Positions 44,425 through 62,850 of a stretch of 64,000 nucleotides of DNA are shown here, piece by piece. Under the pieces are notes generated by a model. That model searched no databases. It was not told the DNA's origin and worked only from the letters and a program-made list of their open reading frames with translations. Numbering within the stretch: position 1 is the stretch's first letter; every line of letters begins with the position of its first letter. The stretch covers positions 1,674,001-1,738,000 of the forward strand of contig NZ_CP041403.1 in assembly GCF_014844135.1 (NCBI RefSeq). The letters run 5' to 3'. This stretch comes from Arcobacter sp. FWKO B (GTDB taxonomy: Bacteria; Campylobacterota; Campylobacteria; Campylobacterales; Arcobacteraceae). Both the position numbers and the translations under genes were made by a program.

Positions 44425-44797
44425 GGGAATGATTTGGCTTCGATTGGAGTAGCAAGGGTTAGTTGCATGCCGATTTGAATATATCGTAAATCTATTCAAC
44501 CGTTTTTAAACGCAAACAATACAAATTATACTCCAGCTTACGCAAAAGCTGCGTAAGTTTATTTAAACTTTCGGAGGCTGCATACCATAGATTCTATCTA
44601 AGTGGTGTTGCGGTTAATAATAGATAGATTATCCTTGTAGTTGATCGGCTATTTGGAGACAATTTAGATCTTAGCTTGAGAGTAGTTTTTTGGAGAGTGT
44701 ACTACTTTTAAAGTGAAACTAAACAATCTTTTCTAAGCATGTAGACGCTAATTTGAGTTATTTCAAGACACGGGTTCGACCCCCGTCATTTCCACCA
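44425..44797 (+). ncRNA. ssrA: Transfer-messenger RNA (tmRNA)
   Basis: One-piece tmRNA of 373 nt. The 5' end GGGAATG pairs with CATTTCC at the 3' end, followed by ACCA. The T-arm reads ACGGGTTCGACCCCCGT. The resume codon GCA is at 44512; the tag ORF (44512-44556) encodes ANNTNYTPAYAKAA and stops at TAA. The AYAKAA end resembles the known Campylobacter tag. It rescues stalled ribosomes together with SmpB, which is not encoded here. Confidence 0.97.
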
Positions 44798-44839: not shown

Positions 44840-45505
44840 TTAAAAGACTAATTTATATCCTAAAGCATATTCTGTAACTAAATGTTTTTGTATGGTTCCA
44901 TTATCATTTATTTTATCTCGTATATTTTTGATATGATAATCTAAGGAGCGTTGATTTTTACTATCTGATGATAGGCAATCACACAATAACTCTCTCTTAA
45001 CAGTTTTATTTTTATGCTTAATAAGGATTTTGAGTATTTCAAATTCTATTTTAGTAAGTTTTAAAGGCACATTATCAAAATAAATTGTATTTTCAAATAT
45101 CTCAAATTTTGATTTATTGCTATCAACAAAACTGCTACTACTTCTAATATGTACCCATATTCTAGCTTCAAGTTCTTCTGTATCTATTGGTTTAACCATA
45201 TAATCACTTGCACCAAGTTTAAAGGCTTGGAGTTTAGTATTTCTATCAGAATAAGCACTAACGACTATAACAGGTATATGGATTTTATTTTTATTTAGAA
45301 ATTTCAAAACTTCAAATCCATTAAAATCAGGTATATTTAAATCTAGTAAAACAATACTATATTTTGAATATTTTATATTTGAGAGGGCACTTGTTACAGT
45401 ATCAAAAATATCCACATCAAAATCACACTCTTGTAAATAATCTTTTAACAATAAGGCTGTATCTACATCATCTTCTAAAACCAATATCTTATTCTTAAAC
45501 TCCAT
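44840..45505 (-). CDS. OmpR-family response regulator
   Basis: 221 residues. The receiver domain has LEDDVD, phosphoacceptor Asp in LLDLNIPD near residue 54, and KPIDTEE with the conserved lysine near 105. The C-terminal winged helix (about 130-220) ends EYALGYKLVF. It is divergent from the diguanylate-cyclase operon at 45691. The 185-bp shared spacer holds 11-bp-periodic repeats, so it probably controls that operon. A -10-like TACAAT lies at 45532-45537 on its own strand. Confidence 0.92.
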   Translation of the reverse strand: MEFKNKILVLEDDVDTALLLKDYLQECDFDVDIFDTVTSALSNIKYSKYSIVLLDLNIPDFNGFEVLKFLNKNKIHIPVIVVSAYSDRNTKLQAFKLGASDYMVKPIDTEELEARIWVHIRSSSSFVDSNKSKFEIFENTIYFDNVPLKLTKIEFEILKILIKHKNKTVKRELLCDCLSSDSKNQRSLDYHIKNIRDKINDNGTIQKHLVTEYALGYKLVF

Positions 45506-45608
45506 ATTTACCTCTAAAAAGTTATTTTACCATTGTACACTAAATTAACTTATACCTATGAATTTATGTTATTATAGTGATATAAATTTGCCTGTAAAAC
45601 CTAATATT

Positions 45609-45641
45609 CCTTAGAGTTGCTTATAAAGTGCCTAAGAGTTT
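45609..45641 (+). promoter_or_regulatory. Three tandem 11-bp repeats, candidate response-regulator operator
   Basis: CCTTAGAGTTG (45609-45619), CTTATAAAGTG (45620-45630) and CCTAAGAGTTT (45631-45641) lie head to tail at exactly 11-bp spacing. They end 5 bp before a TAGAAT -10-like box (45647-45652). The geometry matches OmpR/PhoB-type activation of the downstream operon. Confidence 0.55.
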
Positions 45642-45658
45642 TTTGGTAGAATCATCTT

Positions 45659-45680
45659 TTAGAATTTAATTAGAATTTAA
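45659..45680 (+). repeat. Perfect 11-bp direct repeat before the diguanylate cyclase start
   Basis: TTAGAATTTAA occurs twice in tandem (45659-45669, 45670-45680), just before AAAAGG and the ATG at 45691. It lies in the expected leader, so it could be a second operator, a repression site or chance in AT-rich DNA. Confidence 0.5.
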
Positions 45681-45690
45681 AAGGTATTAA

Positions 45691-47505
45691 ATGACATTCA
45701 ATGTAAAAAATAAAACTCTGATTTTTATAGTTATAATTTTTATACTAAATATAATTTTTTTTGGTTATATATTTTATAAAAATCTACAAAATGAATTATT
45801 GGAAATTAAAGAGATAAATTTCAACAAAATCAAAACATCTTTTGAAAAAAATATACAAGTACATTATGTGGATTTTTATACTAAAAAAACTCAAGATATA
45901 TTAACTAATGACATGATTAACGCAATTCAAAATAAAGATAAAGATGTTTTATTAAAACTTGCATTACCTATTTTTGATATGTTAAAAAAAGAAAAATTGC
46001 TAAATCAAATGCATTTTCACTTAGAAGATGGTACAAGTCTTTTAAGAGTTCATAATCCATCAAGCTATGGTGATGATATAGCATCATTAAGACCTCTTAT
46101 AAAAAGGGTACATGATACAAACAAAATAGCTTTTGGTTTTGAAGATGGGATAAGTGGTCTTAGCTATAGGGTAGTAGTTCCAGTATTTAAAGACAGTGCT
46201 TATATAGGTGCTATTGAATTTGGTTCAAGTCCAGAGGGGATATTGCATTTAGTTACTATCTTCAATGAAATTTCAGGAATACTCTATTTTGATAATTTAC
46301 ATCTTAGTAGCAAAGAACAAAATAAAATCCAATATATGAGAATACACGATAGATTTTATTATACACTACTAAACAATATGACAAATTTAGTTGATTATCA
46401 ATATATTAACAAAAACAATAGACTAATAGCTATTTATTCATTTGATATACAAAATTATTCAAAACAAAAGGTAGGACATTTTGTATTTTTTAATGACCTT
46501 ACAAAGTATCAAACTAAATTTGAAGAAACAATAGTTGATTTTTTTATTATAAGTTTAGTTTCTTTTATTGTAATTTTTCTTATAATAAATTTTGGATTTA
46601 ATATCATAATTAACAAACTTCAACTTTCTTATGACACAATAAAAAGATACACAAAACTTATAGATGAAAATGTAATAACTTCAAGTACTGATTTAAAGGG
46701 AAATATTACATATACTTCAGAGGCATTTGCTAAAATCAGTGGTTATTCACAAGGTGAGCTTGTGAGCAAAAATCATAGGATTATCAGACACCCAGATATG
46801 CCAAAGGAATTGTATGAAAATATGTGGAAAACAATAAAAAATAATAACACTTGGCAAGGTGAAATAAAAAATCGTAAAAAAGATGGTGGATTTTATTGGG
46901 TAAAGGCTACCATTTCTCCTAGTTTTGATGAAAACAACAAAAAAATAGGTTATACAGCTATAAGACAAGATATAACAGATAAAAAAATCATCGAAGAGAT
47001 AAGTATAACAGATGGTCTTACAAATGTGTATAATAGAAGGCATTTTAATGAGATATTTCCAAAGGTTATAAATAGTGCTAATAGAAAAGATGAACTAGTT
47101 TGCTTTTTGTTATTAGATATAGATCACTTTAAACAATACAATGACAACTATGGACATCAAGCTGGTGATGATGTACTTATAGAGTTTGCAAAATGTCTAA
47201 AAGAAAACCTAAAAAGAGCTGATGATATGGTATTCCGTCTTGGTGGAGAAGAGTTTGGTGTACTATTTAAAAGTGAAACAAAAGAAAAAGCAATAGAATT
47301 TGCCAATAATTTAAAAGAAAAAATTGTTGAGTTAAAAATAGTACATGAATATAGTAGTGCAAGTCCTTACATAACAGCTTCTATGGGACTAGTATGCAAA
47401 TATGGTGATGAAATCAAAGATATGGATGAAGTTTATAAAGATGCTGATGATTTGCTATATAAATCCAAACAAAATGGAAGGAATCAGGTAAGTATAAATG
47501 GATAA
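45691..47505 (+). CDS. Diguanylate cyclase with Cache-like sensor and PAS domain
   Basis: 604 residues. TM1 is at about 8-30. The periplasmic domain carries MHFHLEDGTSLLRVHNPSSYGDD and the GFEDGISGLSYRVVVP motif seen in two kinases of this window. TM2 is at about 285-305. The Aer-type PAS (about 330-430) has NHRIIRHPDMPKELYENMW. The GGDEF domain (about 440-600) has GGEEF, with the RADD inhibitory site five residues before it, so an active, product-inhibited cyclase is expected. It overlaps the next gene by 8 bp and begins the c-di-GMP operon. Confidence 0.92.
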   Translation: MTFNVKNKTLIFIVIIFILNIIFFGYIFYKNLQNELLEIKEINFNKIKTSFEKNIQVHYVDFYTKKTQDILTNDMINAIQNKDKDVLLKLALPIFDMLKKEKLLNQMHFHLEDGTSLLRVHNPSSYGDDIASLRPLIKRVHDTNKIAFGFEDGISGLSYRVVVPVFKDSAYIGAIEFGSSPEGILHLVTIFNEISGILYFDNLHLSSKEQNKIQYMRIHDRFYYTLLNNMTNLVDYQYINKNNRLIAIYSFDIQNYSKQKVGHFVFFNDLTKYQTKFEETIVDFFIISLVSFIVIFLIINFGFNIIINKLQLSYDTIKRYTKLIDENVITSSTDLKGNITYTSEAFAKISGYSQGELVSKNHRIIRHPDMPKELYENMWKTIKNNNTWQGEIKNRKKDGGFYWVKATISPSFDENNKKIGYTAIRQDITDKKIIEEISITDGLTNVYNRRHFNEIFPKVINSANRKDELVCFLLLDIDHFKQYNDNYGHQAGDDVLIEFAKCLKENLKRADDMVFRLGGEEFGVLFKSETKEKAIEFANNLKEKIVELKIVHEYSSASPYITASMGLVCKYGDEIKDMDEVYKDADDLLYKSKQNGRNQVSING

Positions 47506-49663
47506 TTCTGAGAAAAAAATACTTATAATAGAAGACTCAAAATCAATAAATAATATATTACTTACACACTTTCAAAGTGTAAATTTTAAAGGCTATCAAG
47601 CTTTTAATCTAAAAGATGCAAAAGAACTACTAGAAAAAGAGGAATTTGATTATTGTGTTCTTGATGTTCATTTACCAGATGGCAATGGATATGAAGTCCT
47701 TGAGATTTTGAACAAAAAAGATATAAAAATTTTTATACTAACAACGGAAAAAGACAATCAACTAAAAGAGTTGTCGTATAAAAAAGGAGTGATTGATTTT
47801 ATTATCAAAGATAAGGATTTTTTCTCAAAAGTTAAACAGCTAATACAAGAGATACAACAACTAGAAGATAATAAAAACTACTCTGTTTTAGTAATAGAAG
47901 ACTCCTTTGTTGTACAACAACAACTAAAAGACCTACTTGAAAATAGAAATTTTAAAGTTTTTGTAAAAGATAGTGCAAGTAGTGCTTTAGATTTGATTGC
48001 AAATGAACATATTGATTTGATATTACTTGATTTACACCTCAAAGATACAAACGGACTAGATTTTTTAAATAAAAACAAATATCTTTTAATAGAAGAACGA
48101 AAAATTGCTATTATTATAATATCTGGCAATATTGAAGCAAATAGTCTAAGAGATGCTGTAAAATTAGGTGCAAAAGATATACTAAAAAAACCATATTCCT
48201 ATGAAGAACTAGTACTCAAGGTAGATATGTGTATAGAAGATAAAAGAAGAGAAAAAGGGTTTTTGTCAAATGTGTTTTTGATGCAACAATACAAAGATAC
48301 TATAGATAGAAGTGCCATGGTCTCAAAAACTAACCACAAAGGGATAATCACTTATGTAAATGATGAGTTTTGCAGAATCTCTGGATATAGTGCAGATGAA
48401 CTAATGGGGAAAAATCATAATATTGTAAGACATGCTGATATGCCAAAAGATGCTTTTGAATTGATGTGGTACACAATAAAAGATTTAAAACAACCTTGGA
48501 GCGGAGAGGTAAAAAACCGCAAAAAAGACGGTAGTGCTTATTGGGTACAATCTATCATAAGCCCAATTCTTGATAGCCATGGTGATGTTATAGAATATAT
48601 TGGTATAAGGAATGATATAACCCAACAAAAAACTATATCTTCATATTTTGAGAATCAACTCAAAATCTCAACTAGTAACTTTGATGAAGCTATGAATCTT
48701 TCAAGAGAATATGAAAAAGCTATTATCAATAATAGTGCTATTGCAAAACTTGAACTTGATTTTACGATCAAATTTGTCAATGACCAATACCTTCTTCTTT
48801 CTAAATATTCCTCTGAAGAGATGATAGGAAAACCAATAGTTGATTTTGTGGATGAGGAGTCCTTGACAAACTTGGAAGAAATAATACAACAAGTACAATC
48901 TGGGGTATTTTATCAAGGTATTTTCAAAGGAAAACCAAAACATGGAGAACCTTACTATACAAAAACAACAATAAATCCCATAAAAGATACTAAAGGTAAT
49001 ACGGTTGAATATCTTTTAATAAAAAATGATATCACAAAGCTTATCAATACCCATCATGAGATAGAAGCAACCCAAAAAGAGATAGTATATAAAATGGGTG
49101 AAGTGGGAGAAAGTAGAAGTAAAGAAACTGGAAATCATGTCAAAAGAGTAGCAGAGTATTCAAGACTTCTAGCACTTTTGTATGGACTTAGCCCAAAAGA
49201 AGCAGATATTTTATTTACCGCAAGCCCTATGCATGATATTGGAAAAGTTGCAATACCTGATAGTATCTTGAATAAACCAGCTAAATTGACCCAAGAAGAA
49301 TTTGAGATAATGAAATCACACGCTAGTATAGGGTACAAAGTACTTCAAGGCTCAGATAGAGCAGTACTCAAAGCTGCTTCTATTGTAGCACATGAACATC
49401 ACGAAAAATACAATGGTACAGGCTATCCAAGAGGACTTCAAGGTGAAGAGATACATATCTATGGAAGAATAACAGCTATTGCTGATGTATTTGATGCACT
49501 AGGACATGATAGATGCTACAAAAAAGCTTGGGAGCTTGATAAAATACTTGCCCTTTTTGAGGAAGAAAAAGGTAAGCATTTTGACCCAAAACTTATAGAT
49601 TTGTTTATGGATAATCTTGATAAGTTTTTGGAGATTAGGGATAGGTTGAATGATGAGTATTAA
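47498..49663 (+). CDS. REC-REC-PAS-PAS-HD-GYP phosphodiesterase
   Basis: 721 residues. Receiver 1 (about 5-118) has Asp in VLDVHLPD. Receiver 2 (about 126-245) has Asp in LLDLHLKD and KKPYSYEE. PAS 1 (about 262-380) has NHNIVRHADMPKDAFELMW. PAS 2 is about 400-515. The HD-GYP domain (about 530-715) has MHDIGKVAIPD and HHEKYNGTGYPRG, both complete. It probably hydrolyses c-di-GMP to pGpG or GMP under dual phospho-control. It sits directly between the cyclase and a kinase gene with overlapping ends, so synthesis, degradation and phosphorylation are encoded as one unit. Confidence 0.93.
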   Translation: MDNSEKKILIIEDSKSINNILLTHFQSVNFKGYQAFNLKDAKELLEKEEFDYCVLDVHLPDGNGYEVLEILNKKDIKIFILTTEKDNQLKELSYKKGVIDFIIKDKDFFSKVKQLIQEIQQLEDNKNYSVLVIEDSFVVQQQLKDLLENRNFKVFVKDSASSALDLIANEHIDLILLDLHLKDTNGLDFLNKNKYLLIEERKIAIIIISGNIEANSLRDAVKLGAKDILKKPYSYEELVLKVDMCIEDKRREKGFLSNVFLMQQYKDTIDRSAMVSKTNHKGIITYVNDEFCRISGYSADELMGKNHNIVRHADMPKDAFELMWYTIKDLKQPWSGEVKNRKKDGSAYWVQSIISPILDSHGDVIEYIGIRNDITQQKTISSYFENQLKISTSNFDEAMNLSREYEKAIINNSAIAKLELDFTIKFVNDQYLLLSKYSSEEMIGKPIVDFVDEESLTNLEEIIQQVQSGVFYQGIFKGKPKHGEPYYTKTTINPIKDTKGNTVEYLLIKNDITKLINTHHEIEATQKEIVYKMGEVGESRSKETGNHVKRVAEYSRLLALLYGLSPKEADILFTASPMHDIGKVAIPDSILNKPAKLTQEEFEIMKSHASIGYKVLQGSDRAVLKAASIVAHEHHEKYNGTGYPRGLQGEEIHIYGRITAIADVFDALGHDRCYKKAWELDKILALFEEEKGKHFDPKLIDLFMDNLDKFLEIRDRLNDEY

Positions 49664-51455
49664 AAGAAAATTCATATTTTTTTATATTGTGACACTACTT
49701 TGTGTAGGGATAATTTTATACATAGAAAAAGAATCAAAAATCAATAACTATCTCATTGAAAGAACCAATATTGCCAAAATTAACTATAATTCTCTATACA
49801 ATGAATATAAAAAAATAGCTGATATTATATTTCTTACCCAAATCAATCAAAAAGAGATTTTAGAGATATTTTCGCAAGCTAATAAAGTATCAAAAGTTGA
49901 GCAACAAAACATAAGAAATACTTTATATCGCAACCTTGATAATGTTTATGCGTTACTAAATAGTTATAATTTAAGACAACTTCACTTTCATCTTCCAAAT
50001 AGTGATAGTTTTTTACGATTTCATAGACCTGAAAAATTTGGAGATAGCTTAGTAGGGATTAGGGATACCATAGAATTTGTAAATAAATACAAAAAACCAA
50101 TAGATGGATTTGAAGAGGGTAGAATATTTAATGGATATAGATTTGTATATCCTTTGTTTTTTGAAGATATTCATATTGGAAGTGTAGAGGTATCATTTAG
50201 TACTTCTGAGTTTGCGAAAGAATATGATATGGATTATGGCTCTACAAGCTTTTTTTTAGTATCAAAAAAACTAGTTGATCAAAAAGTGTTTGAGGATGAG
50301 CAAGATAATTACAGTGTATCATTTCTTGATGATTTTTATATTTTAAATGAAAAAGATACAATAAATCAAGTATCAAAGATGAAAGAGATATCTAAAGGGA
50401 TAAAAAACACTAAAACTATAGAAAATAAAATATACGATGGTGTGGGATTTAGTATTTCAAGTCCTGATAACCTTGATACAATCACATTTATACCTATTTT
50501 AAATTCTATCACACAATCTGTATCTGCGGTACATATCATAAAACACAAATCAATTTATATCAAAAACAAAATAGTATTGACAAATATTTTATTAGTAGTT
50601 TTATTTACACTTATATCTTTGATATTTTATTTTTTATACCTTAATTTTAGGCACAAGAAAGAGTTGCAAGACAAAATTGATTTGGCAGTTGCACATATGA
50701 GACATCAAGATATGATACTTCACAGACAAAGCAAAGCTGCAGCTTTGGGTGAAATGATAGATGCTATAGGACATCAATGGAAAACACCACTTAGTATTAT
50801 TAGACTATATGCTCAAGATATAGGGTATATTTTAAAAACTGATAATAATATAGATAAAAAAGAGTTGCTTTTTTATCTAAATAAAATTTTATTTCAAACA
50901 GAACATTTAAATGAAACCATAGATAGCTTTAGAGAATTCTTCAGACCACTTTCAAATATAGAAGATGTTATATTAAAAGAATTAATTGACAATACATTAG
51001 TTATTGTTAAAGATGAAATGATACAGTACAATATCATTCCTTCTATTACTGGAGATTTTGATACTAAAGTTTGCCTTGTACCAAATGAATTCAAGCATGT
51101 GATTTTAAATCTTATAAAAAACAGTAAAGATGCTTTTATTGAAAATAATACAAAAGATAGAGTAATAAATTTTCATATAAAACAACTAAATGTAAATGAA
51201 ATAGAGTTACAAATAAGTGATAACGCTGGTGGAATACCTAAAAATGTAATAGAACACATTTTTGAGCCAAATTTCAGTATAAAATCACAAGATATTGGGA
51301 CGGGTATAGGACTATATATATCAAAACAAATTCTTGATAAAATAGGTGCTGAAATAAATGTAGAAAATATAGATAATGGTACTAAATTTATTATCATCAT
51401 TTATAAAGCTTGTGAGTTGCGAAATATTGCTAATCACAAAAAGAACTTAAAGTAA
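49650..51455 (+). CDS. Sensor histidine kinase with Cache-like periplasmic domain
   Basis: 601 residues. TM1 is at about 8-25. The sensor holds LHFHLPNSDSFLRFHRPEKFGDS and GFEEGRIFNGYRFVYPLF, the same signature as the proteins at 37985 and 45691. TM2 is at about 308-330. The H-box reads IGHQWKTPLSIIR near residue 375; Arg of HQWR is replaced by Lys. N-box NLIKNSKDAF and GTGIGLYISKQ are intact. It overlaps the HD-GYP gene by 14 bp and may phosphorylate its receivers. Confidence 0.92.
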   Translation: MMSIKRKFIFFYIVTLLCVGIILYIEKESKINNYLIERTNIAKINYNSLYNEYKKIADIIFLTQINQKEILEIFSQANKVSKVEQQNIRNTLYRNLDNVYALLNSYNLRQLHFHLPNSDSFLRFHRPEKFGDSLVGIRDTIEFVNKYKKPIDGFEEGRIFNGYRFVYPLFFEDIHIGSVEVSFSTSEFAKEYDMDYGSTSFFLVSKKLVDQKVFEDEQDNYSVSFLDDFYILNEKDTINQVSKMKEISKGIKNTKTIENKIYDGVGFSISSPDNLDTITFIPILNSITQSVSAVHIIKHKSIYIKNKIVLTNILLVVLFTLISLIFYFLYLNFRHKKELQDKIDLAVAHMRHQDMILHRQSKAAALGEMIDAIGHQWKTPLSIIRLYAQDIGYILKTDNNIDKKELLFYLNKILFQTEHLNETIDSFREFFRPLSNIEDVILKELIDNTLVIVKDEMIQYNIIPSITGDFDTKVCLVPNEFKHVILNLIKNSKDAFIENNTKDRVINFHIKQLNVNEIELQISDNAGGIPKNVIEHIFEPNFSIKSQDIGTGIGLYISKQILDKIGAEINVENIDNGTKFIIIIYKACELRNIANHKKNLK

Positions 51456-51474
51456 ATATCTAAGGAAAATCTAC

Positions 51475-52446
51475 ATGATAAAAGAAGTTGAAGTATTTTT
51501 AAAAGAAACAAAAATATCATATAAACAGTTTGATAGGCTGTTGGATTTTTTTTACTTTAAAGATATTATATCACATAAACAGTCTTTTAATGATGTTTGT
51601 AGAGAAATAGAATGTTTTTTTTCTCAAAACTTTCATATGTCTAGTATGAAAATAATGAGTTATGATATTGAGGTTGGTAGCCAACATATTTTGTATTCTT
51701 GTGGTGATTTCTTTAATGAAAATTTTGATTTGCAAGTGTTTAAATTTGACTTTTCAAAATCTTATGAACTAAATGGTAGGCTTTATTTTAAAACAATTGA
51801 TGACGCAAGTTATAAAAAAGTACAAGAAGATAAAACATTCTTAAATTTTATCTTCTATGAGATGAAACATATATTATTGTATTATCTTTCTATGCAAAAA
51901 CTTAAAGAATCTGCTTTGATAGATCCTATCACTTCATTACCAAATAGAAAATTTCTGGTCAGACACTTAAGCTCTGTTCTAGAAATAGCAAAAAAAGAAA
52001 ATATTCAAATAGCACTTTTAAAAGTAGACATTGATAGATTTAAAGCGGTAATTGAAGAATTTGATTATGATATATCAAATAAAGTACTACAAAAACTTTC
52101 AAAAGTTCTTGTCAAGAATATATCAAGTACTGATATTGTTACGATATTTGAAGATAATAGTTTTTTAATATGTGTGCAAGACATGAAAAAAGAGTGTGAT
52201 ATAATATATTTAGTTCAAAAGTGTATCAATGATTTTGCAAAAGAGTATGTTATTGTAAATCAACATACAGGTCAAAAGCTTTTTAAAACTATTTGTGTAG
52301 GTATGAGTATTTACCCAAGAGATGGAGAGTATTTAGATAAATTGATAAAACATTGTGATATTGCACTTGATGAAGCAAAAAATAAAGGAAGGTCATCTTA
52401 CTCTTTCTTTCACGAAGAACAAAATTGTGTGATTGATCTTTTTTGA
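51475..52446 (+). CDS. Degenerate GGDEF-domain protein
   Basis: 323 residues. The N-terminal half (1-145) has no recognised domain. The C-terminal half (about 148-315) follows the GGDEF fold: DPITSLPNRKFL, LKVDIDRFKAV, ICVGMSIYPRDGE and ALDEAKNKGRSSYS. The signature loop reads FEDNSF where GG(D/E)EF should be, so cyclase activity is not expected. It may bind c-di-GMP or GTP or act as a scaffold. It lies within the c-di-GMP operon, 19 bp after the kinase. Confidence 0.85.
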   Translation: MIKEVEVFLKETKISYKQFDRLLDFFYFKDIISHKQSFNDVCREIECFFSQNFHMSSMKIMSYDIEVGSQHILYSCGDFFNENFDLQVFKFDFSKSYELNGRLYFKTIDDASYKKVQEDKTFLNFIFYEMKHILLYYLSMQKLKESALIDPITSLPNRKFLVRHLSSVLEIAKKENIQIALLKVDIDRFKAVIEEFDYDISNKVLQKLSKVLVKNISSTDIVTIFEDNSFLICVQDMKKECDIIYLVQKCINDFAKEYVIVNQHTGQKLFKTICVGMSIYPRDGEYLDKLIKHCDIALDEAKNKGRSSYSFFHEEQNCVIDLF

Positions 52447-52462
52447 TCTAAAAAGGTACATT

Positions 52463-54037
52463 ATGAATAAAAGACATTATTTAGAAATAGAGTTATATCA
52501 ACTGATTCAAAAAGACTCTTCTATGTTTGAGTTTATACAAAATGGCTCATTGGATGGATTATGGTATTGGGATTTAGAAAATCCTGAAAATGAGTGGATG
52601 AGTCCAAAGTTTTGGAAAGTTTTAGGATACAATCCTTCTGAAAAAAAGCATTTTGCATCCTCGTGGCAAGATATTATATATCATGAAGATTTAGAAATAG
52701 CCCTAAAAAACTTAAAAAAACATATTGAAAATAAAAATCACCCTTACGACCAAGTAGTAAGATATAAGCACAAAAATAGCTCTACTGTATGGATAAGATG
52801 CAGAGGAATAGCCATCAGAGATAAAAATGGCAAAGCCATAAGAATGCTTGGAGCTCACAATGATATTACTAATGAAAAAAGGCTAGAAGAAAAATATCTT
52901 CAAAAGTCAAATGCCCTCAAAGCAATTCTTGATATATCACTTGATGGAATTATGGCTTTTGATGCCCTTTATGATAATTCAGGTGAAATAGTTGATTTTG
53001 TATGGACTATGTCCAATAAAAAAGCTTGTGAGATTATCAATATAAAAGAAGAAGACTTAATTGGGAAAAAACTATCATTAATTATGCCTGGAAACTTTAT
53101 CCCTTTAGATTCTATTGGTGGACAAACTCTTTTTGAAAACTATAAAGAAGTTGTAGAAACTGGAAAACCAAAAATACTAGAATTTTACTTTGCATATGAT
53201 AATATTAAAGAATGGTTTGAAAACAAAGCTGTAAAATATAATAATGGCTTTGTGGTGACTTTTGGTATTATTACAGAAAAAAAACAACTTCAACTTAACC
53301 TTGAGCAAATAGTAAATGAAGAGGTTGCAAAAAATAATCAAAATCAAAAACTACTTTTTCAGCAATCAAAACTTGCAGAAATGGGTATGATGCTCAATAT
53401 GATAGCCCATCAATGGAGACAACCTTTAAATCATATATCACTGATATTTAATAATATAATTTTAAAATTTCAAAAAAATCAGCTTACTATTAGTGAAGCA
53501 AATGAACTAAGAAATAATTTTCAAAACCAAATTAATTATATGTCAAAAACAATTGATGACTTTAAAGATTTTTTCAAACCTACTAAACAAAAGTCATTAT
53601 TCGAAATATCTAAAATTATTAATGAAACCATTGATTTGATTAAACCAAGTATTAAAGAATCAAGAATTAATCTCATAGTAGATAGTGAAAATTTAATCGA
53701 ATATTTTGGATACAAAAATGAACTAAAACAAGTACTGCTAAATATTATCAATAATTCAAAAGATAGTCTTCTTGAAAGTAAAACTAAAGAAAAATATATC
53801 AAAATAGTCGCTAAAAAAGTTGATAATAATATAATCATAAAATGTGAAGATAATGGCAGAGGTATTGATACTAATATCATAGATAATATTTTTGACCCTT
53901 ATTTTTCTACAAAAATATCTAAAAATGGTACTGGATTAGGATTATATATGGCAAAAACTATTATTCAAAAACATTTTCAAGGTACTATTACAATACAAAG
54001 TAATAATAATTCAACTATATTTATAATAAAACTATAA
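52463..54037 (+). CDS. Cytoplasmic PAS-PAS sensor histidine kinase
   Basis: 524 residues from ATG 52463, which follows AAAAGG; an in-frame ATG ten codons earlier overlaps the previous gene and lacks a site. PAS 1 (about 20-140) has GLWYWDLENPENEWMSPKFW and YKHKNSSTVWIRCRG. PAS 2 is about 150-275. The H-box IAHQWRQPLNHIS is near residue 315. NIINNSKDSL and GTGLGLYMAK complete the ATPase domain. No membrane segment is seen, so it is soluble. It is the last gene of the run starting at 45691. Confidence 0.92.
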   Translation: MNKRHYLEIELYQLIQKDSSMFEFIQNGSLDGLWYWDLENPENEWMSPKFWKVLGYNPSEKKHFASSWQDIIYHEDLEIALKNLKKHIENKNHPYDQVVRYKHKNSSTVWIRCRGIAIRDKNGKAIRMLGAHNDITNEKRLEEKYLQKSNALKAILDISLDGIMAFDALYDNSGEIVDFVWTMSNKKACEIINIKEEDLIGKKLSLIMPGNFIPLDSIGGQTLFENYKEVVETGKPKILEFYFAYDNIKEWFENKAVKYNNGFVVTFGIITEKKQLQLNLEQIVNEEVAKNNQNQKLLFQQSKLAEMGMMLNMIAHQWRQPLNHISLIFNNIILKFQKNQLTISEANELRNNFQNQINYMSKTIDDFKDFFKPTKQKSLFEISKIINETIDLIKPSIKESRINLIVDSENLIEYFGYKNELKQVLLNIINNSKDSLLESKTKEKYIKIVAKKVDNNIIIKCEDNGRGIDTNIIDNIFDPYFSTKISKNGTGLGLYMAKTIIQKHFQGTITIQSNNNSTIFIIKL

Positions 54038-54145
54038 ATTAATTATAACTATAAGATATAGAAGTAAAGCTTTTTATAAGAGCATTTATCCCAATAATCC
54101 TCATAATCCTCATATTTATGTCTAAATTAACTCATATTTGTATGA

Positions 54146-54151
54146 TATAAT
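54146..54151 (+). promoter_or_regulatory. Putative extended -10 of the REC-GGDEF-cetAB-like operon
   Basis: TGATATAAT at 54143-54151 in the 148-bp spacer, 35 bp before the start codon. A second TATAAT overlaps at 54156-54161. A short direct repeat ATAATCCTC x2 lies upstream near 54093. Confidence 0.5.
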
Positions 54152-54185: not shown

Positions 54186-55451
54186 ATGGCAAAAATTCTT
54201 ATAGTTGAAGATTCTCAAACTATTCTTGCAAGACTTAGTGATGCTATTATTAAAACACTAAAATATGATGTTATACAAGCTTCATCTTTTGAAGATGCTA
54301 AAAACAGACTAAACAAATACAAAGATATAGATATGGCTCTTCTTGATCTTGGTTTACCTGATGCAAAAGATGAAGAGATTGTAGATTTTGTTCAAAAATT
54401 TAATATTCCTATAGTTGTACTCACAGGAAGTGATAATGACAAAACAAAAGAATTAATATCAAAGAAAGATATTTTGGCTTATATCATAAAAGATAGGAGT
54501 TATGCTGTAGAATATGCTATTAATATAGTTAAAAGATTTATAAAAAATAAAAAAACCCATATTTTAATAGTAGATGATAGTAAAACATTTGGAGCACAAT
54601 TAGCTAACTTGTGTCAAAAATATAATCTTTTAGTATCTATCGCCACAAGTGGGAAGGAAGCTTTAGAAATTCTTTCTAAGAATATAGATATTAAATTAGT
54701 GTTTGTAGATTTTATTATGCCAAATATGAATGGTTTAGAGCTAACTACTGAAATCAGAAAAACTCACTCAAAAGATGATCTGGCAATTATAGCATTAAGT
54801 GGAAATAATGAGAAAGAAGTTGTTACACAATTTCTTAAATATGGTGCAAATGATTTTATTTCAAAAGATTTTGCAAACGAAGAATTAATAGCAAGATTAA
54901 ATAATTCATTAGAAATTCTAGAACTATTTGAGACGAGTAGGGATTTGGCAAATAAGGATTTTTTAACAGATTTATTTAATAGGAGATATTTTTTTAATAC
55001 TTGTAATATACTTTATGAAAAAGCTAAAAAAGAAAAACAAAATATTTGCGTTGCTTTAATAGATATAGATAATTTTAAAGTAATTAACGATACACATGGT
55101 CATGAAGTAGGAGACTTTGTGTTGAAACATTTATCTAAGTTACTAAAAACTAAACTCAATGATAACATCATGGTATCAAGATTTGGTGGAGAAGAGTTTT
55201 GTTTATTTTTCGACAACTTCTCTGAAATTGACTCACTCAAAGAACTTGAACAATTAAGAATTGCTGTAAATAATGGATTTGTTACAGTTAATGAAGATAC
55301 GAAAATCAAGTATACTTTTTCTTGTGGAATAAGTTCTAATGTTGGTGACAGTTTAGATAGTATGATTAACTATGCAGATATTTCATTGTATCAGGCAAAA
55401 ACTAATGGTAAAAACCAAATTCAAATTTATAAAGAGGATAAAAAATGTTAA
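54186..55451 (+). CDS. REC-REC-GGDEF response-regulator diguanylate cyclase
   Basis: 421 residues. Receiver 1 (1-118) has LLDLGLPD but an odd AYIIKDR in place of the usual lysine-proline turn. Receiver 2 (about 122-245) has VDDS, Asp in FVDFIMPN and SKDF. The GGDEF domain (about 258-415) has RFGGEEF and is probably active. The RxxD inhibitory site is absent (NDNI). PleD-like architecture. It overlaps the CetA-like gene by 7 bp, so phospho-controlled c-di-GMP synthesis is encoded with an energy-taxis receptor. Confidence 0.93.
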
Positions 55452-56839
55452 ATGAAATGAAAACTAAAAACAAACTATTATTAAATATGATGATAGCTCA
55501 AGTAGGTTTTATAGGTATTGGTATAGGTGGACTTGTGTCACAAAGTAGTACTTTAATCATTGTGTTAAATATAGTATTTGGTATAATTCTTGCTATAACT
55601 AGTTATATATTTGCTAATTCTATAACAAGTGGCATGGAAGAGTTTGAAAAAGGTTTTGATAGGCTATTAGCTTTTATGAACCTTAAGCAAAATAAATATA
55701 TACCAATAAACTCAAGAAAGAAAGATGAACTTGGAAATCTTATGAGAAGACTTGATGCTACAGCATTAGAACTTGACACAAAAATCAAAGAAGATATGAA
55801 AGTTCTTGGTGAAATAGTTATAACTATGGATAAAGTTGAACAAGGTATTTATAGCTGTAGAATCAAAGCAAATTCATCAAATCCAATGATAAGTACACTT
55901 AGAAAAACTATAAACAAAATGCTTGATGAAGCAGATCAAAATATGAAAAACTTGGTAAAAACTTTGGAATTTTATTCACAAGATGATTTTAGATTACAAG
56001 TTCCAATTAATCCTAAACTAAAAGGAGAAATGTTAATAGTTCTAAAAAGTGTCAATTCTCTTGGTAATACATTGACAAAAAATGCACAAAGAGACTTAAA
56101 AAATGGACAAACCTTAGAGAACAATGCCAATTCAATGGCTGCATCAGTTGCTAATGTTGCACAAAAAGCAAACGAACAAGCTGCAAGTTTAGAAGAAACT
56201 GCTGCTGCTGTTGAGGAGATTACAAGTATTACAAGAAATAATGCTGATAATGCTCAAAAAATGGCAACACTTGGAAATACTGTAAAAAGTGCTGTGTCAA
56301 AAGGTCAAGGGTTAGCAACACAAACAGCAAGCTCTATGGATCAAATTAATAAAGAAGTAAATGCTATAAATGAAGCAATAGCAGTAATTGACCAAATAGC
56401 ATTTCAAACTAATATCTTAAGTCTAAATGCTGCGGTTGAGGCTGCAACTGCAGGGGAAGCTGGAAAAGGATTTGCTGTTGTTGCTGGAGAGGTAAGAAAT
56501 CTTGCTTCAAGAAGTGCTGAAGCAGCAAAAGAGATAAAAGCTATTGTTGAAACAGCAACGACAAAAGCAAATGAAGGTAAAAGTATTAGTGATGAAATGA
56601 TAAAAGGGTATGAAGATCTAAATACTCATATTTCACAAACTATCAAAATAATAGAAGATGTAAGTAATGCTAGTAAAGAACAAATGCTTGGTATTGAACA
56701 AATAAATGATGCTGTAACAATGCTTGATCGTGTAACACAAGAAAATGCGAGTGAAGCAAATAATGTTGCTTCAATTGCAAATGAAACACTTGCTATGGCT
56801 GAAACATTAGTAAGCGATGCAAAAAGTAAGAAATTTTAA
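55445..56839 (+). CDS. CetA-like chemoreceptor without periplasmic domain (copy 1)
   Basis: 464 residues. Two membrane helices (about 11-30 and 35-57) are joined by a very short loop, so no ligand-binding domain is exposed. A HAMP-like linker follows (about 60-210), then a chemoreceptor signalling hairpin with tip [20 protein letters not shown] near residue 325. In Campylobacter jejuni CetA has this architecture and works with the separate PAS protein CetB in energy taxis; the PAS gene follows 15 bp later. From residue 220 onward the DNA is almost identical to the second copy at 62866. The first 210 residues share only about half their residues with that copy by eye. Confidence 0.9.
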
Positions 56840-57246
56840 TTAAGGAGAGTTATTATGTCAAAAGAAACAATACTCGATGATTATGCATTTTTGGTTAGTG
56901 AAACAGATGAAAAAGGGATAATAAGATTTGCAAATGATGATTTTTGTAAAATAGCTGAATATTCTCTTGATGAAATGATGGGAAAGCCTCATAATATGGT
57001 AAGACACCCTGATATGCCAAAGGCTGCATTCAAAGATCTTTGGGAAACAGTAAAAAAAGGTAATGTTTGGACAGGTTATGTAAAAAATGCTACCAAAAGT
57101 GGTGGTTATTACTGGGTTTATGCAACTGTTTATCCTTTTGAAAGCTGTGATGGTAGCAAAGGTTATATGAGCTGTAGAAGAAAGGCTAGTCGTGAAGAAA
57201 TTGATCAACATGACAAATTATACAAAGATTTAAAAGCTAAAGAGTA
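56101..57246 (+). repeat. 1.14-kb inverted duplicate, left copy
   Basis: Covers the signalling half of the first CetA-like gene, the intergene and the whole CetB-like gene. Compared with the right copy (62459-63604, inverted) I count about seven mismatches, all apparently silent. The match stops abruptly at the CetB-like stop codon (TAG here, TAA there). Confidence 0.9.
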
Positions 57247-57247
57247 G
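56855..57247 (+). CDS. CetB-like single PAS-domain protein (copy 1)
   Basis: A 130-residue Aer-type PAS protein. FANDDFCKIAEYS and GKPHNMVRHPDMPKAAFKDLW are the FAD-binding PAS hallmarks. WTGYVKNATKSGGYYWVYATVYPF closes the fold. In C. jejuni the related CetB passes a redox or electron-transport signal to CetA. AAGGAGAGTTATT precedes the ATG. The encoded protein is identical to the second copy at 62458. Confidence 0.92.
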   Translation: MSKETILDDYAFLVSETDEKGIIRFANDDFCKIAEYSLDEMMGKPHNMVRHPDMPKAAFKDLWETVKKGNVWTGYVKNATKSGGYYWVYATVYPFESCDGSKGYMSCRRKASREEIDQHDKLYKDLKAKE

Positions 57248-62457: not shown

Positions 62458-62850
62458 TTACTCTTTAGCTTTTAAATCTTTGTATAATTTGTCATGTTGA
62501 TCAATTTCTTCACGACTAGCCTTTCTTCTACAGCTCATATAACCTTTGCTACCATCACAGCTTTCAAAAGGATAAACAGTTGCATAAACCCAGTAATAAC
62601 CACCACTTTTGGTAGCATTTTTAACATAGCCTGTCCAAACATTACCTTTTTTTACTGTTTCCCAAAGATCTTTGAAAGCAGCCTTTGGCATATCAGGGTG
62701 TCTTACCATATTATGAGGCTTTCCCATCATTTCATCAAGAGAATATTCAGCTATTTTACAAAAATCATCATTTGCAAATCTTATTATCCCTTTTTCATCT
62801 GTTTCACTAACCAAAAATGCATAATCATCGAGTATTGTTTCTTTTGACAT
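62458..62850 (-). CDS. CetB-like single PAS-domain protein (copy 2)
   Basis: 130 residues, identical in protein sequence to the copy at 56855, with the same FAD-type motif NMVRHPDMPK. At DNA level I find three silent differences plus TAA for TAG at the stop. The 15-bp intergene to the CetA-like gene is identical too. It is followed by cheW, unlike copy 1. Confidence 0.92.
   Translation of the reverse strand: MSKETILDDYAFLVSETDEKGIIRFANDDFCKIAEYSLDEMMGKPHNMVRHPDMPKAAFKDLWETVKKGNVWTGYVKNATKSGGYYWVYATVYPFESCDGSKGYMSCRRKASREEIDQHDKLYKDLKAKE

What the first reader, a model, noticed from the sequence alone, without database searches (positions are those of the whole stretch)
45609..45652. Triple 11-bp tandem repeat upstream of the cyclase operon
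Three head-to-tail 11-mers with shared CYTWAGAGTT-like core end 5 bp before a TAGAAT box. The regulator encoded divergently (44840-45505) is of the OmpR family, which binds such repeats. This predicts direct activation of the c-di-GMP operon and possible autoregulation.
Basis: partly seen in the sequence, partly recalled or inferred. Interest (0 to 1): 0.6.

Follow-up and report, generated by a model that had tools for sequence, protein, structure and literature searches.

The report
Response-regulator operator beside cyclase operon
The short DNA repeats are almost certainly the docking site of the signalling regulator encoded next door, and relatives across the order carry the same four-part layout at the same distance from the promoter, so this is a real but ordinary kind of gene switch, here controlling c-di-GMP signalling genes.

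Summary
The repeat is real, but it is better described as an operator of four half-sites than as three equal 11-mers. R2 (45609) and R4 (45631) match 9 of 11 bases and lie 22 bp apart. The middle copy R3 is weak (5/11). A fourth half-site, R1 (CCTAATATT, 45600-45608), was missed. TAGAAT follows R4 after 5 bp.

The neighbouring OmpR-type regulator has orthologues across Campylobacterales. Upstream of 29 of them lies the same gapless layout: R1, 9 bp, R2, 11 bp, R3, 11 bp, R4, 5 bp, -10 box. A matrix built without the window scores 45600 as the second-best place of the 64 kb. Strong sites occur only in genomes that have the regulator, before chemoreceptor, PAS, kinase and GGDEF genes.

Direct regulation of the cyclase operon is therefore well supported by inference; binding and start sites remain untested. 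45600 is a divergent copy (GAGTT for GATTT in both half-sites), and a local profile search does not find it. In relatives the regulator's own -10 box is embedded in R2, suggesting autorepression; the window site has lost it.

Closest known: PceP of Sulfurospirillum. New regulon, known kind.

The parts
45600..45608 (+).
   Evidence: 9 bp upstream of R2, the spacing conserved in 29 orthologous upstream regions; R1 carries 9.9 bits of conservation in 49 sites
45609..45619 (+). Half-site R2, CCTTAGAGTTG
   Evidence: 9/11 identical to R4; aligns with R2 of the family matrix; differs from the invariant family T17 (G here)
45620..45630 (+). Degenerate middle copy R3, CTTATAAAGTG; lies where a -35 box would be
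   Evidence: 5/11 match to its neighbours; R3 is also weakly conserved in the family (7.2 bits)
45631..45641 (+). Half-site R4, CCTAAGAGTTT, 22 bp from R2
45647..45652 (+). -10 box TAGAAT of the cyclase operon promoter
   Evidence: 5 bp after R4, as in all 29 RR-adjacent sites, where it is TATAAT/TACAAT/TAGAAT-like; L131 has TAGAAT
44840..45505 (-). OmpR-type response regulator, the predicted ligand
   Evidence: Response_reg and Trans_reg_C domains; recognition helix RSLDYHIKNIR identical to orthologues that own the operator, not shared by the five checked OmpR-type paralogues in this genome
45571..45598 (-). Candidate promoter of the regulator: TTTACA (45598-45593), 16 bp, TATAAT (45576-45571)
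   Evidence: 11/12 consensus match; consensus scan only, 2.5 expected in shuffles at the lower 9/12 threshold
45524..45529 (-). TAAAAT, second candidate -10 box of the regulator, at about the ancestral distance from its start codon
   Evidence: compare the relatives' TAnAAT inside R2
45691..47505 (+). dCache-PAS-GGDEF diguanylate cyclase with GGEEF motif, first gene of the controlled operon
   Evidence: sequence
47498..54037 (+). Rest of the operon: REC-REC-PAS-PAS-HD-GYP protein, dCache histidine kinase, degenerate GGDEF protein, PAS histidine kinase
   Evidence: overlapping or closely spaced ORFs
54099..54151 (+). Second, canonical operator and promoter: CCTCATAAT CCTCATATTTA TGTCTAAATTA ACTCATATTTG TATGA TATAAT
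   Evidence: 31.7 bits with the matrix built without the window; E=2.4e-7 genome-wide with model R1, but R1's alignment includes this site
54186..57247 (+). Genes after the second operator: REC-REC-GGDEF, MCP, PAS protein

Best explanation
45600-45652 is an operator plus promoter bound by the divergently encoded OmpR-type response regulator. Phosphorylated regulator binds R2 and R4 head-to-tail, on both sides of the -35 position, with R1 as an extra upstream contact. It thereby recruits RNA polymerase to a promoter that has a -10 box (TAGAAT) but no -35 consensus, and switches on the c-di-GMP and sensor operon 45691-54037. The same regulator controls a second sensory operon through the canonical site at 54099. 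Shown here: conserved layout, co-occurrence with the regulator, conserved recognition helix. Inferred: binding, direction of effect (activation), phosphorylation, transcription start.
For: The matrix from 29 orthologous upstream regions, window left out, scores 45600 at 8.3 bits; apart from 54099, the next place in the window scores -5.2. The score is reached 0 times in 4.2 million positions of a window-composition null and 5 times in 4.2 million of an intergenic-composition null. Among family loci (725,000 positions) only two places outside the site set score 5 or more, the higher at 9.3, against 11.8 for 45600 with the 49-site matrix. The window keeps 9 of 10 invariant columns of alignment A1 (compared by eye). 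Strong matches (E below 1e-4) in 104 Arcobacteraceae genomes occur only in genomes with a regulator orthologue: 15 of 20 against 0 of 84. About 20 sites not next to the regulator precede mostly MCP, PAS, REC, kinase or GGDEF genes. The recognition helix is conserved, and homologues with an altered helix (QSLNYHIQNIR) lack the site. An OmpR-family regulator of the same phylum, PceP, binds CTATW-N17-CTATW (22-bp period) at -35 and is linked to activation (PMC7755780).
Against: The window copy is divergent: G instead of the invariant T in R2 and of T in R4, and half-site scores of 5.4 and 3.9 against family means of 11.2 and 9.6. The local profile search finds only weak fragments here and does not list the site genome-wide. 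G001, the closest relative with the regulator (69% identity), has no recognisable operator next to it. No binding or expression data exist. The sign of regulation is inferred from geometry.
Confidence: 0.65

Rival explanations
1. 45600 is a decayed or decoupled relic of the operator. The regulator now acts through the canonical site at 54099, and the first cyclase operon runs from its -10 boxes without control or with only weak control.
For: Low score and coordinated departure from the family consensus; downstream alternatives TAGAAT at 45660 and 45671 exist.
Against: R1 position, 9/22/5 spacing and most invariant bases are kept, and R2 and R4 remain 9/11 identical to each other, which random decay would not preserve.
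Confidence: 0.13
2. The site represses rather than activates the operon: the half-site between the -35 and -10 positions blocks RNA polymerase.
For: R4 lies in the promoter spacer, and in relatives the array overlaps the regulator's own -10 box.
Against: No plus-strand promoter with a -35 box was found, as expected for an activated promoter; PceP sites overlapping -35 are associated with induction (PMC7755780).
Confidence: 0.12
3. The GAGTT version of the operator is read by a different response regulator, so two regulators share one ancestral layout.
For: Both half-sites carry the same T-to-G change; the genome encodes many response regulators.
Against: None of the five checked OmpR-type paralogues shares the recognition helix (not every paralogue was checked); the site lies beside this regulator; no other GAGTT pair exists in the genome.
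Confidence: 0.07
4. Chance similarity of AT-rich promoter sequence.
For: The triple-repeat statistic alone is not significant (566/3000 shuffles).
Against: Held-out matrix score, position beside the regulator, and conserved spacing to the -10 box.
Confidence: 0.03

Closest known systems
PceP (RR2) cis-regulatory element of Sulfurospirillum, CTATW-N17-CTATW (PMC7755780)
   Same: Same phylum; OmpR-family regulator; three direct repeats with 11-bp period, the outer two (22 bp apart) needed and the central one in the -35 box; a shared intergenic site for divergent units
   Different: Different half-site sequence (CTATW against CTYAGATT); no extra half-site 9 bp upstream reported in the passages read; the PCE respiration regulon instead of chemoreceptor and c-di-GMP genes; proven by EMSA there, not here
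ArcA box of E. coli (PMC3798270)
   Same: Direct-repeat elements 11 or 22 bp apart, often three to five per site, in the OmpR/PhoB family
   Different: No fixed position relative to the promoter for ArcA; here the distance to -10 is fixed at 5 bp; 9-bp spacing of R1 is not the predominant ArcA pattern
PhoB pho box (own knowledge)
   Same: Tandem 11-bp half-sites replacing the -35 element, class II-type activation
   Different: Half-site CTGTCAT; the last half-site lies a few bp further from -10 than here (from memory, not tested)

Membership tests
OmpR/PhoB-family response regulators | Receiver domain plus C-terminal winged helix (Trans_reg_C) | tested here: met
   Pfam PF00072 E=6.7e-25 and PF00486 E=1.2e-14; full-length matches to solved OmpR-type regulators such as 1kgs and KdpE
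OmpR/PhoB-family operator | Head-to-tail half-sites about 11 bp (or 22 bp) apart | tested here: met
   R2-R4 spacing 22 bp with 9/11 identity; spacing conserved in 29 orthologous regions; the R1-R2 step is 9 bp, not 11
OmpR/PhoB-family operator | Bound by the phosphorylated regulator | not testable with these tools
   needs EMSA or DNase footprint
The Campylobacterales operator family defined here | R1-9-R2-11-R3-11-R4-5-(-10) in register | tested here: met
   window 45600 and 54099, held-out matrix
The Campylobacterales operator family defined here | Half-site core CTYAGATT | tested here: inconclusive
   54099 close to it; 45600 has GAGTT for GATTT in both R2 and R4; local model does not recover 45600
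PceP-type element | CTATW-N17-CTATW | tested here: not met
   spacing identical, sequence different (PMC7755780); works like it, is not one

The most novel reading that the evidence does not exclude
An undescribed, order-wide operator family in which one four-half-site array (9-11-11 spacing) activates a sensory operon and, through a -10 box embedded in half-site R2, represses the divergent regulator gene. In the window's lineage this coupling has been broken, with a coordinated change of half-site sequence (GATTT to GAGTT in both copies) that tunes a c-di-GMP operon separately from a second, canonical target.
Probability: 0.4. Interest if true: 0.5.

Novelty: new member of a known kind. Interest (0 to 1): 0.4.

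Why it matters
It gives a testable regulator-operator pair and a small regulon (chemoreceptor, PAS, kinase, GGDEF genes) for an apparently uncharacterised two-component regulator found in many Campylobacterales, where few regulons of environmental species have been worked out. The embedded -10 box offers a clean case of one operator controlling two divergent promoters and of that link being lost in one lineage.

Tried and rejected
DGC homologues from genome contigs: none of their loci carries the operator, so the cyclase gene does not travel with it. GAGTT-type pairs in the same genus: only about control-level matches. tmRNA-linked island: no second copy of the tmRNA 3' end in the window. Conventional sigma-70 scan: no plus-strand promoter with a -35 box, which fits an activated promoter. 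Alternative -10 boxes at 45660 and 45671 (in an exact 11-bp tandem TTAGAATTTAA, 45659-45680) were rejected as the main -10 because the conserved 5-bp distance points to 45647. Literature: no paper found in the held library describes this regulator or motif.

Full report
Observation. The window bases are as reported: CCTTAGAGTTG, CTTATAAAGTG, CCTAAGAGTTT at 45609-45641, then TTTGG and TAGAAT at 45647-45652. The outer copies agree at 9 of 11 bases and start 22 bp apart; the middle copy agrees at 5 of 11 with each. A triple of that overall quality appears in 566 of 3000 dinucleotide shuffles of the 185-bp intergenic region, so 'three 11-mers' is not by itself significant; the G/C-containing 22-bp pair is (1 of 3000). 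The pair is unique in the 2.24-Mb genome.

Regulator. The divergent gene 44840-45505 (-) encodes a receiver plus Trans_reg_C protein, with full-length matches to solved OmpR-type regulators. Orthologues of 40-70% identity are found in 19 other Arcobacteraceae genomes of 104 searched and in further Campylobacterales families. In most Arcobacteraceae loci the regulator is divergent from a variable sensory operon: MCPs, NMT1-type sensor kinases, REC or PAS proteins, GGDEF proteins.

Footprint. Their upstream regions share one gapless 53-bp layout: R1 (9 bp), R2 (11), R3 (11), R4 (11), a 5-bp spacer and a -10 hexamer. The typical elements are CTCAGATT (R1), CCTCAGATTTT (R2), CTTAGATTT (R4) and TATAAT. 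R1, R2, R4 and -10 carry 9.9, 14.8, 12.4 and 8.7 bits; R3 only 7.2. R3 coincides with the -35 position, and R4 lies between -35 and -10.

Window site tested blind. A matrix from the 29 orthologue sites, window excluded, ranks 45600 second of all positions on both strands of the window (8.3 bits) and 54099 first (31.7); the next is -5.2. Simulated sequence reaches 8.3 in 0 of 4.2 million positions (window composition) or 5 of 4.2 million (intergenic composition). With the 49-site matrix (45600 not in it), 45600 scores 11.8 and the next non-site place in the window -4.3; only two unlisted places of 725,000 in family loci score 5 or more, the higher 9.3. 54099 is in the 49-site set, so its score of 43.7 there is not held out. 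The window site keeps 9 of 10 invariant columns (comparison by eye). Against this, a local profile model finds only fragments at 45600 and lists only 54099 as a strong site genome-wide, because both R2 and R4 read GAGTT where the family reads GATTT. The site is therefore a divergent copy.

Regulon. In 104 Arcobacteraceae genomes, model R1 gives strong hits (E below 1e-4) in 15 of the 20 genomes with a regulator orthologue and in none of the 84 without. The regulator-adjacent sites and 54099 trained the model; the other 19 or so non-adjacent sites did not. These sites precede MCP genes (an orthologous MCP in G006, G016, G029 and G033), PAS proteins, REC proteins and similar. In the window the second site precedes REC-REC-GGDEF, MCP and PAS genes. 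So one regulator appears to control a chemosensory and c-di-GMP regulon.

Embedded promoter. In 27 of 29 regulator-adjacent sites, the last bases of R2 and the first of R3 read TAnAAT on the minus strand (23 TAAAAT, 2 TACAAT, 2 TAGAAT), a -10 box pointing at the regulator gene, which starts about 10-25 bp from the array in most Arcobacteraceae loci. Over all sites it is present in 29 of 31 with a divergent upstream gene and in 2 of 17 with a co-directional one (Fisher p=1.5e-8; sites are related to one another, so the p-value is optimistic; the script stopped at a later step, after printing this result). At the same offset in R4, 9 of 49 have it. Bound regulator would cover its own -10 box: autorepression geometry. 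In the window this box is absent from the array (GCAACT) and the array lies 95 bp from the gene. The regulator has instead TTTACA-16-TATAAT at 45598-45571 and TAAAAT at 45529-45524. If the first is used, the array lies just upstream of its -35 box, where activation is possible; this is untested.

Specificity. The recognition helix RSLDYHIKNIR is shared with site-owning orthologues; homologues with QSLNYHIQNIR (L162-L168) lack the site. None of the five OmpR-type paralogues of this genome that were checked shares it.

Comparison. PceP of Sulfurospirillum binds CTATW-N17-CTATW, with three copies of 11-bp period and the central one in the -35 box (PMC7755780). ArcA sites hold extra direct repeats 11 or 22 bp apart (PMC3798270). 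The present case works the same way by geometry but has its own half-site, the extra R1 at 9 bp and a fixed distance to -10. I found no description of this regulon in the held library.

Verdict. New member of a known kind.

Noticed in passing
window 54099-54151: Canonical second operator and promoter in front of a REC-REC-GGDEF / MCP / PAS gene group, 8.5 kb from the reported repeat.
   Followed up: yes
window 45659-45680: Exact 11-bp tandem duplication TTAGAATTTAA x2 downstream of the -10 box, each copy holding another TAGAAT hexamer; out of phase with the half-sites.
   Followed up: partly
window 44425-44797: tmRNA gene ends 43 bp from the 3' end of the regulator gene; tmRNA 3' ends are common integration points, but no second copy of the 3' end is in the window.
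   Followed up: partly
window 51475-52446: GGDEF-domain protein whose motif reads EDNSF instead of GG(D/E)EF: probably not a catalytically active cyclase.
   Followed up: no
window 56855-57247 and 62458-62850: Two copies of a 130-aa PAS protein with identical sequence in opposite orientation, each next to an MCP with a near-identical or identical C-terminal part: looks like a recent inverted duplication of an MCP-PAS pair.
   Followed up: no
L129 (G001, same genus): The regulator is present (69% identity) but its upstream region has no recognisable operator although the recognition helix is intact.
   Followed up: partly
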